From Planctomycetota bacterium (lineage in GTDB: Bacteria; Planctomycetota; UBA8742; UBA2392): a stretch of 49,533 nt of DNA. The position numbers and the translations under genes were made by a program. Under the pieces are notes generated by a model that saw only the letters and a list, made by a program, of their open reading frames with translations, was not told the DNA's origin and ran no database searches. How positions within the stretch are numbered: position 1 is the first letter of the stretch; every line of letters starts with the position of its first letter. Location of the stretch: contig JAMQHL010000047.1 in assembly GCA_025993795.1 (NCBI GenBank), forward strand, positions 70,529 through 120,061, in the 5' to 3' direction. This document shows positions 37,640 to 41,510 of this stretch, one piece after another.

Positions 37640-38979
37640 TTTTTGCGCACGTCTGGCCGGGTCGTTGCATCGTCCGGCGCGGGCTGAACCTGCGCATCCG
37701 GTTCAGTCGCCTCATTGGCTTTGTCGATGCCAAGCGCCATGGCAATGCGCCGAATGCTGTCTTCGTCGCCCCGGGATGCTTCCTGCTTGATGCCCTGGAT
37801 CTGCGGGTGCAGCAGCTTGTTGACCAGGCGCTCGCTGAAGGCTGCCAACTCGCTGCGTTGCGCTTCGGTCAGGTCCGGGAGCTTTGCCAGCACTCTTTCC
37901 AGCTCTGCGTTCTTGACGGCGATGGCCTTTTCTCGCAGCTCTGTGATCAGCGGCCCGGCAGAGTAGGTCTGGAAGCTCGCGAGAAACAGGTCCGCTTCCT
38001 GCCGCACGATGGCGGCGCATTGTTCAAGCTCGCGGCTGCGCTCGCCTGTGTTCTCGGCGACGACATGTTCAAGGTCGTCCACGTTGTATAGAAACACGCC
38101 CTCAAGCTCAGCCGCACTTTCCTCAATGTCGCGGGGCACCGCCAGGTCAAGTGCGAATACCGGCGCATGGCGCCGATGCTTCTGGGAGCGCGCAAATTGG
38201 GCCTTGCTCAGGATGCGATCTTCGGCGGCCGTCTGGCTGATCACGACGTCGGCGCCGGGCAGATAGTCCTCCAGCAGGTTTACCGGGACCGCGTCGCCCT
38301 TGTAGCGTTCGGCGATTTCTTTGGCGCGATCAAGGCTGCGCGACACAACAACCACGCGCCCGATGCCCGCTTCGCGCAGATAGGTCAGCGTGAGTTCGCC
38401 GACTTCGCCGGCGCCGATCAGCAGCGCGGTCTTGGATGCCAGGTCGTCGAAGATGCGCTTGACGAAGCGCACAGCCACCGAGCTGACGCTGACCTGGCCG
38501 TGCCCGATGCCGGTGTCGGTGTGAAGCCGCTTGGCAACGTGAAAGGCGCGGTGAAACAGGGCGTTGAGCTGCTTGCCGGTGCTGCTTTCGCTTTGCGCCA
38601 GCAAGTACGAACGTTTTACCTGGCTCAGGATCTGGGTTTCGCCCAGCACCAGGCTGTCGAGGCCGCCGCAGACTCGCAGCAGATGCTCAATGGTATCGCG
38701 GCCGCGGTGGAAATAGCACAGCTTCTCGAGGTACTCGGGCTTCATGCCGTGGTCAGCGGCCAGTGCCGCCAGCAGCTTATCGCGGGCATCCAGGCCCTCG
38801 GAAAAGGCATAGATCTCGACGCGGTTACACGTCGAGAGCAGCACGGCTTCATCGGTGCCCAGACACTGCTGCACATGCTTGAGCGCGCCGGGCACCTTGC
38901 GCTCCGGGTACGCAAGGCGTTCCCGCACCTCAAGGGGCGCGTATTTGTGGTTGATGCCCAGCACTAGGTACCGATGCAT
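37636..38979 (-). CDS. hemA: Glutamyl-tRNA reductase
   Basis: This enzyme reduces glutamyl-tRNA to glutamate 1-semialdehyde with NADPH, the first step of C5 haem synthesis. The catalytic Cys is residue 51 in LLSTCNRVEIYAF. It opens with the usual GINHKYAPLEVRERLAY and has GSLVLGETQILSQVK and the NADPH-binding GAGEVGELTLTYL. At 447 residues it is of normal length, with a Pro/Asp-rich tail. The ATG at 38979 gives the standard start; a longer frame reaching 39156 reads back through the ccsA-like gene. It overlaps that upstream gene by 16 bases, so the two are coupled. Confidence 0.95.
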   Translation of the reverse strand: MHRYLVLGINHKYAPLEVRERLAYPERKVPGALKHVQQCLGTDEAVLLSTCNRVEIYAFSEGLDARDKLLAALAADHGMKPEYLEKLCYFHRGRDTIEHLLRVCGGLDSLVLGETQILSQVKRSYLLAQSESSTGKQLNALFHRAFHVAKRLHTDTGIGHGQVSVSSVAVRFVKRIFDDLASKTALLIGAGEVGELTLTYLREAGIGRVVVVSRSLDRAKEIAERYKGDAVPVNLLEDYLPGADVVISQTAAEDRILSKAQFARSQKHRRHAPVFALDLAVPRDIEESAAELEGVFLYNVDDLEHVVAENTGERSRELEQCAAIVRQEADLFLASFQTYSAGPLITELREKAIAVKNAELERVLAKLPDLTEAQRSELAAFSERLVNKLLHPQIQGIKQEASRGDEDSIRRIAMALGIDKANEATEPDAQVQPAPDDATTRPDVRKN

Positions 38980-39860
38980 GAGACTTTCCCGACAACTGCA
39001 GCGGTCTGAACGCGACTGTTCGATCTGGACCATACGCCAAGGCCGACAAAGGTCATCACGACCAGGGCGAAACCCAACAGCACCATGTAGAAGTTGCGGC
39101 GCCCGCGCAAAAACCCGAGCCAGCGGCCCGCTGCCACCAGCAGCAGTACCGCCCATAGCACCAGGCTGGGCGGAATCTTTGGGTTGCGCACGATCGACTC
39201 CCAGCCCGACGGCGACAGCGCGATGAATCCCAGCACCAAGCCAAGACTGAGCAGGGGCAACCCCACAAGAATGCAGGTGTCTACCAGCCGCTTCAGGCTT
39301 TCCAGCGGCGGGAAGCTGCGAATCAGCGTCGGATCCTGGTGCTTCTTCAGGGCACGCTCCAGCACCAGGAACATGACTGCGGCAAGCGATGCCATGAAGA
39401 ATGCGCCGTAGCTCAGGAGCGTCAGCAGCACGTGAATCACCAGCAGGGGCGTGCTTTCGTGGCCCTGCGCGGCGCTGTCGGCAAATGCCAGATTGACGAT
39501 GAAGATGATAGCGACCGCCGGAAAGGCAAACGCCCCAAGGGCAGGCAGCTTACGCATGCGCGTGGCGATGAAATAGGCCAGCACCAGGCACAGGCCCGCA
39601 AGTTCAATCACCTCAAACAGGTTGGTGAACGGTTCGCTGCCGGCTTCGGTGAAGCGCGCGATGAAGTACGCACCAAGGCAGAAGGCACCGGCAGCGCCGG
39701 TCCAGTCGGCCCAGGCCATGCGGACCTTGCGGGGCTGGAGCAACGCGATCACGGAGATGATGGCTGCGATCAAAAACAGCAGGATGCTGGCGTGCAGAGT
39801 CACCAGGGCGGCAGGGCCCATAGCGTGCTGCGTGAAGGAATGAAACGTCTGTAAGAGCAT
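38964..39860 (-). CDS. Cytochrome c assembly protein, CcsA/HemX-like
   Basis: This ~298-residue integral membrane protein has about eight hydrophobic helices and the CcsA/CcmC-type fold. Visible features are FTEAGSEPFTNLFEVIELAGL (~68-88), a shortened relative of the periplasmic haem-handling loop, and HVLLTLLSYGAFFMASL (~140-156) with a likely haem-ligand His. HemX-type relatives lie beside hemA in many bacteria, as here, and modulate GluTR or handle haem. The ATG at 39860 is the first outside the upstream AT-rich inverted repeat, but no ribosome site precedes it. The repeat unit at 39864-40414 may have displaced the native one. An in-frame start further up would encode only the repeat. Confidence 0.8.
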   Translation of the reverse strand: MLLQTFHSFTQHAMGPAALVTLHASILLFLIAAIISVIALLQPRKVRMAWADWTGAAGAFCLGAYFIARFTEAGSEPFTNLFEVIELAGLCLVLAYFIATRMRKLPALGAFAFPAVAIIFIVNLAFADSAAQGHESTPLLVIHVLLTLLSYGAFFMASLAAVMFLVLERALKKHQDPTLIRSFPPLESLKRLVDTCILVGLPLLSLGLVLGFIALSPSGWESIVRNPKIPPSLVLWAVLLLVAAGRWLGFLRGRRNFYMVLLGFALVVMTFVGLGVWSRSNSRVQTAAVVGKVSCIGT

Positions 39861-39863
39861 AAC

Positions 39864-39901
39864 CGCAATTGGCAATTCACAACTGGCAATGAGCAATTCA
39901 A
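39864..39901 (+). repeat. Left inverted-repeat arm of the four-helix-bundle element
   Basis: Blocks CGCAATTGGCAATTC (39864-39878) and AATGAGCAATTCAA (39888-39901) are separated by 9 bases absent from the right arm. It lies 3 bases upstream of the ccsA-like start. Confidence 0.75.
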
Positions 39902-40375
39902 TCAAGCCGCACTATCTTCGTGATTGCTCTGTCGTTTGCTACCCCGCGTACTCATGACGATGGCGCCGAGGATCTTCCTCAGTTCTTGGGCATCTGCTGC
40001 CAGACGATCCAGGGTGTTGTCCAGGTGGCGGGATTTTGGATTCAGCCAGGGCTCTATCTTGCTGGACTGCTGAACAGTCATCGGAAGCGAAGCGTCGGAA
40101 TCAGGAATCATGCGCAACCAGTAATCAGATTCGCGCGCCTCTTTGAACGCAATACTCATCTTGGACAGGAAGTCGGCACGGGATTGTCCGCCCTGCGCCT
40201 CCTCAATGTTGGCGCCGACAGAAGCCGCCGATCTCTGCACTTGCTTCAGGTGGGGGTAGCCCGGATGGAACTGCGCCTTGCGGAGTTGTGCCACGACAAA
40301 GCGCGACACCGCCACCGCGAAGCGGTAAGTCCGTCTCAGAATTTCCGGCTCGGGCACTCCGGTCTTATTGGCCAT
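39902..40375 (-). CDS. Four-helix-bundle protein, S23/Avd type
   Basis: This 157-residue helical protein belongs to the four-helix-bundle family that includes the protein encoded in 23S rRNA intervening sequences and the Avd accessory protein of diversity-generating retroelements. Family landmarks are RRTYRFAVAVSRFV (~14-27), the QVQRSAASVGANIEEAQGGQSRADFLSK run (~45-72) and IAFKEARESDYWLRMI (~75-90). No reverse transcriptase or variable repeat is near, so an Avd role is not supported here. It interrupts the mlaD-ccsA run and is flanked at once by inverted repeats. AAGG lies 7 bases before the ATG. Function is unknown; members are basic proteins that may bind nucleic acid. Confidence 0.85.
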   Translation of the reverse strand: MANKTGVPEPEILRRTYRFAVAVSRFVVAQLRKAQFHPGYPHLKQVQRSAASVGANIEEAQGGQSRADFLSKMSIAFKEARESDYWLRMIPDSDASLPMTVQQSSKIEPWLNPKSRHLDNTLDRLAADAQELRKILGAIVMSTRGSKRQSNHEDSAA

Positions 40376-40383
40376 ACAAAACC

Positions 40384-40414
40384 TTCAATTGCTCATTCCG
40401 AATTGCTAATTGCG
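40384..40414 (-). repeat. Right inverted-repeat arm of the four-helix-bundle element
   Basis: On the minus strand it reads CGCAATTAGCAATTC (40414-40400), two bases, then AATGAGCAATTGAA (40397-40384). It ends 7 bases from the mlaD stop codon and forms the leader of the four-helix-bundle gene. Confidence 0.75.
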
Positions 40415-40421
40415 AACTGCC

Positions 40422-41510
40422 CTACTGAAGGACCTGGAACAGCAATGAAGCAAACGTCGTAATCGGCGCCTGTTCGCGGATGTCTTCGAAACCTGCGCGC
40501 AGGGTGTTGATGGCGTTCAGCGTGTCGTTGAACAGCGTGTCGTTCTTGAACAGCTTGCCCACGGTGCCTTCGCCGCGGTTCACGCCCTCCATTGTGTCGC
40601 CGAGTTCTTTGGCGACGCGTGAAGCGTTGTCAACCAGCGTCGGCGCACGGGCGATGGTTGCCTTCATGTTCTGGCCGGTTTCTTCGTCGTTGAGCAGCAC
40701 GCCGAAAAGGCCCTTGCCGTTGTCCAGCTTCTCGGCGATTGACTTGGCGCTGCGTGTCGCGCCGACGGTATTGTCGGTGGCGTCTTCAACGTTCTTTACG
40801 ATGTTCTTCATGCGCATTGCCGTGTCGGCGTCGTCGAGCAGCATGGCGGCCATGCCCTCGCCGCTGTTCACTTTCTCGGTGATGTCGCGCACGTTGCTGG
40901 TGATGCCTTTGACGTCTTCGCTGGTGGCGCGTACGTTCTCGACGGTCGCGGCAATATCGCCCGCTACCTTTTCGTCGCGCAGAATGGTGCCGATGGGGCC
41001 GCGCCCGTCGCGCACGTCCTTGACGATCGCGTTCACGTCCTTGACCGTATCGACGGCAAGGTCGATGCCCTCATTGATCTTGCCGATACCACGTCCCGCC
41101 GCCGTAAACAGGTCTTCGACCACCCGGCCTTCAATCGGCGTTTCCATATCGTGCGGTGTGGGGGATTCGCCCATGTACAGCGCAATCGCGCGGCCGCCGA
41201 ACGCGCTGCTTGAAATGATCTCCGCGTAGCAATCCGAGTTCAGGCGCACGTCGCTGTCGATGCTGATGCGCACCAGCACGGTGCCGTTGCGCGTATCCAC
41301 GATCATGTCCTTGACCTTGCCCTTAGGCACGCCGCTGATCCAGACCGGCGAGTTCAGTTGCAGCCCCTGGACGTTGGGAAACAGAATCTGGGCGGGCTGG
41401 TCGGCTTTGAAGCTGATCGCGCCGTCGCCGCCAAGGCGAATCGCAAAGAACAAAACGATGCCGATGGCGGCAAAGAACAGCAGACCGGCAATGATGTCAC
41501 GTGCTTTCAT
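40422..41510 (-). CDS. mlaD: MlaD-type MCE-domain protein
   Basis: This 362-residue substrate-binding component of an Mla-like lipid ABC transporter has one N-terminal membrane helix (~8-25), an MCE domain (~38-112, QILFPNVQGLQLNSPVWISGVPKG is the core) and a long helical periplasmic tail. The tail carries four copies of a motif of the form G-x-G-x-x-G-x-L-L/F-x-D: GRGPIGTILRD, GEGMAAMLLDD, GKGLFGVLLND and GEGTVGKLFKN. The start overlaps the mlaF stop (ATGA). It is the last mla gene; the AT-rich element follows its stop directly. No MlaB or MlaC gene is present here. Confidence 0.92.
   Translation of the reverse strand: MKARDIIAGLLFFAAIGIVLFFAIRLGGDGAISFKADQPAQILFPNVQGLQLNSPVWISGVPKGKVKDMIVDTRNGTVLVRISIDSDVRLNSDCYAEIISSSAFGGRAIALYMGESPTPHDMETPIEGRVVEDLFTAAGRGIGKINEGIDLAVDTVKDVNAIVKDVRDGRGPIGTILRDEKVAGDIAATVENVRATSEDVKGITSNVRDITEKVNSGEGMAAMLLDDADTAMRMKNIVKNVEDATDNTVGATRSAKSIAEKLDNGKGLFGVLLNDEETGQNMKATIARAPTLVDNASRVAKELGDTMEGVNRGEGTVGKLFKNDTLFNDTLNAINTLRAGFEDIREQAPITTFASLLFQVLQ

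What the first reader, a model, noticed from the sequence alone, without database searches (positions are those of the whole stretch)
39861..40417. A lone four-helix-bundle gene packaged inside AT-rich inverted repeats
The gene at 39902-40375 is bracketed by arms whose two blocks match at 27 of 29 positions in inverted orientation. The arms touch the stop codon and lie 8 bases from the start, so the unit is almost only gene plus ends. AAC lies just outside each end. The unit splits a minus-strand run of mla genes from ccsA/hemA, ends 7 bases from the mlaD stop, and seems to have removed the ccsA ribosome site. S23/Avd-type genes are known inside rRNA intervening sequences and beside retroelements, but here there is no rRNA or reverse transcriptase. 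This could be a minimal transposable or homing cassette moved in trans, with the bundle protein binding its own ends or transcript.
Basis: partly seen in the sequence, partly recalled or inferred. Interest (0 to 1): 0.8.

Follow-up and report, generated by a model that had tools for sequence, protein, structure and literature searches.

The report
Ring-protein cassette with heptamer-array ends
A single small gene enclosed by inverted arrays of seven-base repeats sits between two unrelated genes here, and the same design recurs at gene junctions across many bacterial groups, so it is likely a mobile element without a transposase gene whose protein is predicted to form a ring and recognise the repeats.

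Summary
The gene at 39902-40375 is an S23 / 23S_rRNA_IVP four-helix-bundle gene (PF05635). Its arms (29/37 complementary) are inverted arrays of about five degenerate heptamers. Of 233 S23 genes scored, 193 have matched inverted arms, against 4/280 shifted mock genes; the unit differs between elements but matches between both arms of one. Thirteen relatives have mlaD and ccsA adjacent without S23. In the genus of Pseudoxanthomonas wuyuanensis the accB-accC junction is empty in 21/38 genomes, holds an S23 element in 11, a gene-less hairpin in 3 and another spacer in 3. Flank and element identity there are uncorrelated (e.g. 98.6% flanks, 69.5% elements), so the junction was likely occupied repeatedly. 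Doublets of the commonest unit there abound mainly in genomes with that S23 element (median 50 versus 1). Best reading: a REPIN/RAYT-like mobile cassette without a transposase, likely helped by its own ring protein; binding, mobility and the cutting enzyme are inferred. 23S rRNA intervening sequences look like its rRNA-resident form; heptamers there were noted for Coxiella but, in the papers searched, not generalised.

The parts
39865..39901 (.). left arm: about five degenerate heptamers (unit like GGCAATT), directly downstream of the S23 stop codon
39902..40375 (-). S23 / 23S rRNA-intervening-sequence-type four-helix-bundle gene, 157 aa
   Evidence: model and fold match to 2rld/2gsc
40384..40420 (.). 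right arm: inverted heptamer array, upstream of the S23 start codon
40422..41510 (-). mlaD-like gene on one side of the insertion
   Evidence: PF02470; flank conserved in relatives
38964..39860 (-). ccsA-type cytochrome c assembly gene on the other side; its upstream leader is replaced by the left arm
   Evidence: PF01578; start codon read from the sequence

Best explanation
The window holds one member of a widespread family of minimal cassettes, a single S23 gene between inverted arrays of mostly four to five heptamers, that likely moves into operon junctions with the help of its own protein, which is predicted to form a ring and to bind the heptamers. Shown: the heptamer arms, the match of unit between the two arms of an element, the recurrence across phyla, the differing presence and identity of elements at one junction in one genus, and the excess of unit doublets in genomes whose S23 element there belongs to that unit group. 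Inferred: that these differences reflect insertion, that the S23 protein recognises the arrays, perhaps one heptamer per subunit (relatives crystallise with five chains, and arms are mostly 4-5 units), that a folded RNA or single-stranded DNA copy is the moving substrate, and that a host nuclease, polymerase or reverse transcriptase supplies the chemistry, since no catalytic domain was found. The arrangement works like REPIN/RAYT: one resident gene flanked by the hairpin sequence it serves, plus a population of gene-less hairpins served in trans.
For: Generality: 193 of 233 S23 genes (five ORFs in four duplicate loci dropped; many loci are orthologous, so not independent) have matched inverted arms at score 16 or more. 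In the two surveys: 119/141 against 1.7% of mismatched pairs, and 57/74 against 3.9%. Controls: shifted mock genes 4/280, mlaD genes 2/26. Period: lag 7 is best in 152/193, lag 8 in 27. Junction: accB-accC in 38 genomes: 21 with a 6-13-bp spacer, 11 S23 elements of 417-455 bp, 3 gene-less hairpins, 3 other spacers. On the flank tree of 30 of them S23 presence needs 7 changes, at least 5 forced by well-supported branches. Element core and flank identity are uncorrelated over 55 pairs (rho -0.07, p 0.64; 98.6% flanks with 69.5% element, 97.2% with 67.9%, but also 96.6% with 91.9%). In trans: GGGAATC doublets (overlapping counts, own arms included), median 50 in the 11 genomes with the accB-accC S23 element versus 1 in the 27 others (p 1.2e-5, kinship not corrected). 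G294 and G329 carry gene-less hairpins at accB-accC whose unit variant resembles that of their own S23 element at another site (31 identical nt in G294). Window unit: 23 hits to its doublet pattern in G000, 5 of them in the element, versus 0 for the reversed control; of 10 other places read, 4 are gene-less hairpins. S23 is under purifying selection (dN/dS 0.06-0.24 in the 15 of 16 chosen pairs with an estimate). Both neighbours lie on the S23 strand in 116/179.
Against: No experiment; no nuclease, transposase or recombinase domain found; no target-site duplication seen. 40 of 233 S23 genes have no arms at the threshold. G325 (no S23) has 28 and G294 (S23 elsewhere) 55 GGGAATC doublets without the accB-accC S23 element; G319 has that element but 2 doublets, its unit being GTGATTC-like. 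G297 and G331 have many dispersed matches to the G294 arms without an S23 element at that site. At some sites alignments run through element and flanks as vertical descent predicts (the L264 site in three genomes; L076/L088, L097/L115, L113/L135). The whole-element RNA fold is not unusually stable (z -0.69), although the arms pair. The protein-unit correlation is weak overall (rho 0.12; largest of 300 permutations 0.08), and units are alike mainly above about 70% protein identity, so shared descent may explain it. Homologous replacement of the junction could mimic re-insertion.
Confidence: 0.6

Rival explanations
1. The cassette is a retroelement-like unit: its transcript, folded by the arms and bound by the Avd-like S23 ring, is copied into new junctions by a reverse transcriptase encoded elsewhere.
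For: Chains of a diversity-generating retroelement RT complex (8ub7, 8ub8, 8ube, 8ubb) appear among the fold matches below the S23 structures, though only at E 0.23-1.1; S23 and RT co-occur in 294 genomes of the phylum (99 both, 52 S23 only, 59 RT only, 84 neither; odds ratio 2.7, p 3.9e-5); elements mostly lie in sense with both neighbours.
Against: 52 of 151 S23-bearing genomes show no PF00078 RT (drafts, so some may be missed); genome size and kinship were not corrected; no RT among the genes named beside the window cassette or within 1.5 kb of six plasmid loci.
Confidence: 0.15
2. The arms are an RNA device, not a mobility signal: the stem is cut by RNase III and the S23 ring binds the array in its own leader as a TRAP-like autoregulator; the cassette spreads only by ordinary recombination.
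For: RNase III cuts the Coxiella intervening-sequence stem in vitro (PMC4990558, passages read); the 5' arm has more G than C in 174 of the 190 elements without a tie; arms pair in the fold. The TRAP comparison is from memory.
Against: Does not by itself explain the excess of unit doublets in genomes with the S23 element or elements far less alike than their flanks.
Confidence: 0.15
3. The hairpins are moved by an unrelated transposase such as a RAYT, and S23 is a passenger gene caught inside a hairpin.
For: REPINs are hairpin doublets proposed to be moved by RAYTs (abstract read); unit doublets and gene-less hairpins outside S23 elements are numerous.
Against: Arms flank 193 of 233 S23 genes scored across phyla, too constant for a chance passenger; the unit group follows the S23 element within a genus. 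RAYT presence was not searched.
Confidence: 0.08
4. Replication slippage makes heptamer arrays everywhere and the association with S23 is incidental.
For: Heptameric repeats are reported as over-represented in many bacterial genomes, with polymerase slippage proposed (PMC4692102, passages read).
Against: Shifted mock genes 4/280 and mlaD 2/26 versus 193/233 at S23 genes; arms are inverted and matched.
Confidence: 0.02

Closest known systems
23S rRNA intervening sequence (IVS) with an S23 ORF, e.g. Coxiella (PMC4990558)
   Same: Same protein family; terminal inverted repeats forming a stem; tandem heptamers (GACAGAT) just before the S23 start, varying in number between strains (passages read).
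   Different: The window and 14 S23 loci below the arm threshold show no rRNA family match; the cassettes read here sit at protein-gene junctions; RNase III excision not tested; heptamers in both arms as a general rule are not described in the passages read.
REPIN-RAYT (PMC3116915)
   Same: A resident gene plus many gene-less hairpins made of inverted doublets in extragenic space (abstract read).
   Different: No Y1/HUH transposase found in the cassette; ends are heptamer arrays of element-specific unit.
Heptameric repeats of Xanthomonas/Nostoc, GGGAATC and GGGGA(C/T)T (PMC4692102)
   Same: GGGAATC is the arm unit of many of the S23 elements at accB-accC in the Pseudoxanthomonas genus (others GGGATTC or GTGATTC); the paper reports 70 and 75 convergent inverted pairs in two Xanthomonas genomes (passages read).
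   Different: No occurrence of 'four helix' or 'intervening' in its text; the passages discuss G-quadruplexes and slippage.
Avd of diversity-generating retroelements
   Same: Four-helix bundle; PF05635 is reported to resemble Avd (PMC10053308, passages read). That Avd is a pentamer is recalled.
   Different: No reverse transcriptase found among the genes checked beside the window cassette; template and variable repeats were not searched for.

Membership tests
23S_rRNA_IVP / S23 protein family (PF05635, TIGR02436) | score above curated cut-off | tested here: met
   54.6 vs 33.8 bits and 66.4 vs 24 bits
23S_rRNA_IVP / S23 protein family (PF05635, TIGR02436) | four-helix-bundle fold like 2rld/2gsc | tested here: met
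   AF2 mean pLDDT 81; Foldseek 2rld_B E 1.7e-5, 2gsc_A E 0.021, probability 1.00 for both
23S rRNA intervening sequence | lies inside a 23S rRNA gene | tested here: not met
   no Rfam match in the window
23S rRNA intervening sequence | terminal inverted repeats around an S23 ORF | tested here: met
23S rRNA intervening sequence | excised by RNase III | not testable with these tools
   needs an RNA assay
REPIN-RAYT | REP-associated tyrosine (Y1) transposase as the resident gene | tested here: not met
   the resident gene is S23; the overlapping plus-strand ORF 39920-40462 has no Pfam match. A RAYT elsewhere in the genome was not searched.
REPIN-RAYT | gene-less hairpins dispersed in the genome, matching the ends of the resident gene | tested here: met
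   four places in the window genome; Pseudoxanthomonas genus
DNA transposon / insertion sequence | transposase and target-site duplication | tested here: not met
   no transposase domain in the cassette ORFs; no duplication at accB-accC by inspection
Diversity-generating retroelement | reverse transcriptase with template/variable repeats beside Avd | tested here: inconclusive
   the one PF00078 match of G000 was not located relative to the window; no RT among the six genes checked by Pfam at the cassette; template and variable repeats not searched

The most novel reading that the evidence does not exclude
A new class of mobile element spread over bacteria, with at least one archaeal case: a transposase-less one-gene cassette whose pentameric ring protein reads a private seven-base code repeated about five times at each end, one heptamer per subunit, and moves both itself and a population of gene-less hairpins into operon junctions; the 23S rRNA intervening sequences and the unexplained bacterial heptamer repeats are its products.
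Probability: 0.4. Interest if true: 0.95.

Novelty: new variant of a known kind. Interest (0 to 1): 0.85.

Why it matters
It joins three loose ends: rRNA intervening sequences, known since about 1990 with function and origin still called unclear in 2016 (PMC4990558, passage); a common 'four helix bundle protein' of unknown function; and heptameric repeats reported in Xanthomonas, Nostoc and Beggiatoaceae. It gives a direct test (does the ring bind its own heptamers?) and suggests a form of mobility in which end sequence and protein diverge together while the design stays fixed. It also offers a way to account for some variable operon junctions.

Tried and rejected
AAC as a target-site duplication: rejected, since the right-hand AAC lies inside the extended arm and no duplication shows at accB-accC (by inspection). 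rRNA origin of S23 loci below the arm threshold: no Rfam match in 14 of them. Reverse transcriptase as an obligate partner: association only. Anti-phage defence: no PADLOC match for the window protein. S23 in phage records: none found with one query protein. Mantel test as proof of protein-unit recognition: set aside, descent may explain it. The within-versus-between arm comparison at shared sites (within higher in 28 of 34 pairs) used only loci already chosen for good arms, so I give it little weight. Some shared-site pairs there are also merely orthologs.

Selection and dropped rows. The 141 loci are 5 from the window genome, the 30 given, 100 regions (99 from the top's list, which shows only the best matches, plus one stretch of the window genome) and 6 of the 31 plasmid records; they gave 143 S23 ORFs, of which 141 had 200 bp on both sides. 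In the final count I dropped L173 (two ORFs that repeat L002 and L004; still inside the 141), L091 and L045 (repeats of L184 and L224 in the second set) and L264 (repeat of L240). Twelve elements with unclear neighbours and two with less than 600 bp on a side are outside the 179. Only 30 of 38 accB-accC loci were fetched at first; the other 8 were read. The flank tree used those 30, and its 18 'empty' rows include two with other spacers. Spacer lengths come from two slightly different boundaries (6-8 bp, 9-13 bp). Of 23 hits to the window-unit pattern, 20 were fetched.

Full report
Observation. The ORF 39902-40375 (-) is an S23-type four-helix-bundle gene. It lies between arms 39865-39901 and 40384-40420 that are complementary at 29 of 37 positions. 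Each arm is an array of about five degenerate heptamers (unit like GGCAATT): lag-7 identity is 0.60 and 0.63, lag-14 0.61 and 0.74, the other lags from 3 to 15 at most 0.34. In a strict scan for period 7 the right arm is the only hit in the window; one of ten shuffled windows also gave one. The left arm abuts the S23 stop; the right arm ends one base from mlaD, and ccsA begins four bases from the left arm.

It is an insertion. The mlaD protein was searched in 60 genomes. In 13 of the 14 closest loci (L009-L022) ccsA lies -1 to 116 bp from mlaD, and in the 14th the contig ends at mlaD; a profile search finds no S23 gene in any of the 14. G002 (mlaD 99% identical in protein) has an unrelated spacer of about 80 bp, while both flanks align. 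The element therefore stands in place of the spacer, including the ccsA leader.

It is not alone. The same genome has five PF05635 genes. Three of the other four show the same plan with other units: GGCAGGA (36 nt, 92%), GGGTTTT (37 nt, 86%) and GGGAGTC; the fourth has only a 17-nt pair. In the GGGAGTC case the arms also enclose about 1 kb more than in G002.

Generality. S23 was found in 151 of 294 genomes of the phylum. I took mostly the best-scoring matches of that list, the window genome's own and six plasmid loci, and scored the left flank against the reversed right flank. Of 141 ORFs, 119 reach score 16, against 1.7% of mismatched pairs. Shifted mock genes give 4/280 and mlaD genes 2/26. 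A second set, the best 80 named loci of a capped scan, gives 57/74 against 3.9%; those with arms include Planctomycetota, Pseudomonadota, Acidobacteriota, Bacteroidota, Bacillota, Chloroflexota, Gemmatimonadota and one Methanophagales MAG (record titles). The six plasmid loci read one by one (of 31 records with a match; five cyanobacterial, one Riemerella) all have arms. Pooled, with duplicates dropped: 193 of 233; best period 7 in 152 and 8 in 27; arm length rounds to four or five heptamers in 124 of 193. The 5' arm has more G than C in 174 and fewer in 16. Both neighbours lie on the S23 strand in 116 of 179. Many loci are orthologous, so these counts are not independent.

Units. The unit differs between elements. 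Mean arm similarity is 0.66-0.75 between proteins above 70% identity, 0.40 at 60-70%, and near background (0.18) below 40%. A Trichormus plasmid element shares its unit, and 70-74% of its protein, with two elements of the phylum set, which fits transfer of gene and arms together. Two copies in G030 (88% DNA identity over 452 bp) lose homology inside the arrays, so the unit of duplication looks like arms plus gene. The gene evolves under purifying selection (dN/dS 0.06-0.24 in 15 of 16 chosen pairs; the other gave no estimate).

One junction, many states. In the genus of Pseudoxanthomonas wuyuanensis 20 of 38 genomes hold S23, in 21 of 23 cases at one of three sites; 21 of 23 have arms. At the accB-accC junction (gene names from my reading of the encoded ends) 21 of 38 genomes have only 6-13 bp, 11 have an S23 element of 417-455 bp, 3 have a gene-less hairpin of about 140 bp, and 3 have other spacers. 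On a tree of the flanks of 30 of them S23 presence needs 7 changes, at least 5 forced. Over 55 pairs of elements, element core and flank identity are uncorrelated: two neighbours with 98.6% identical flanks have elements only 69.5% identical, though another pair (96.6%) has elements 91.9% identical. Repeated gain, or repeated replacement, at an exact junction is the simplest reading; precise loss and homologous exchange are not excluded. At other sites (the L264 site in three genomes; L076/L088, L097/L115, L113/L135) alignments run through element and flanks, as vertical descent predicts.

Unit copies follow the gene. Doublets of GGGAATC, the commonest arm unit at accB-accC, number a median of 50 in the 11 genomes with that S23 element and 1 in the 27 others (p 1.2e-5, kinship not corrected; overlapping counts, own arms included; reversed control 1 hit in all). 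Exceptions: G294 (55), G325 (28) and, the other way, G319 (2). The count in G296 comes largely from one long array. Matches to the arms of the L264 element are many in G294 (42) and G329 (19), few in G298 (7), which all have it, but also many in G297 (35) and G331 (26), which do not; the other 33 genomes have 2-5, mostly flank matches. Two gene-less hairpins at accB-accC (G294, G329) carry a unit like that of the L264-site S23 element of their own genome; the G294 one shares 31 identical nt with it. The third (G297) has no S23 at that site. In the window genome, of 10 places outside the element that match the window unit and were read, 4 are gene-less hairpins, on C14, C28 and twice on C54.

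Protein. The model is a four-helix bundle closest to S23 crystal structures 2rld and 2gsc; chains of a DGR reverse-transcriptase complex follow at weak E-values, 0.23 and above. Both S23 entries hold five chains of one sequence, and the S23 protein of Xanthomonas is described as a homopentamer (PMC4990558, passage). No catalytic domain was found in it, and the overlapping plus-strand ORF has no Pfam match. Five subunits with 4-5 heptamers per arm invites a one-to-one binding model; this is inference.

Literature. Heptamers before an S23 start are reported for the Coxiella 23S rRNA intervening sequence (PMC4990558, passages read). GGGAATC heptamers in Xanthomonas, with 70 and 75 convergent inverted pairs in two genomes, are described in a text without 'four helix' or 'intervening' (PMC4692102, passages read). 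TAACTGA heptamers are described in Beggiatoaceae in a text without 'S23' or 'four helix' (PMC4679880, passages read). PF05635 genes in cas loci were noted earlier (PMC3936711, passages). Paper searches joining S23 or four-helix-bundle terms with heptamers, inverted repeats or mobility list no title or abstract start that makes the general link; only open-licence PMC papers were searched and not all were opened.

Limits. Mobility is inferred from comparison; binding, intermediate and enzyme are not shown. Forty of 233 S23 genes lack arms at the threshold. RAYT presence was not tested.

Noticed in passing
L173:5839-7400 (G000 C67): Arms GTCGGGA enclose the S23 gene plus about 1 kb of extra sequence that G002 lacks at the same site, as if the cassette had picked up cargo.
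   Followed up: partly
L173:8800-8930 (G000 C67): Gene-less inverted array with unit near GGGTTCT in the same region (by inspection); its arm matches many short scattered places in G001 and G002.
   Followed up: partly
L344 and L350, accB-accC junction: Next to the left arm lies an inverted copy of roughly 9 bases of the accB 3' end (by inspection), a possible strand-switch footprint.
   Followed up: no
G296:C1:326879-327564: A perfect GGGAATC array of about 98 units in tandem.
   Followed up: no
L402, L403, L354: The gene-less hairpins of G329, G297 and G294 at accB-accC have similar loops by eye, so they may be one family or one old insertion.
   Followed up: partly
L009 and L178 (G002 spacers): The string GAGCCCCGAGCGCAAGCGAC recurs in two unrelated G002 spacers, possibly another degenerate 7-mer family.
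   Followed up: no
L049, L096, L111, L112, L128, L145: S23 loci whose flanks carry longer repeats that are not 7 bases long (AAACCGTTCAAAC-like).
   Followed up: no
L071, L072, L073, L266: S23 genes sit between cas6 and cas4, between ribonucleotide reductase genes (on the other strand), between an iron-sulfur assembly gene and sufB, and between genes I read as dnaK and dnaJ; core gene junctions may be favoured. L266 shows no arms.
   Followed up: partly
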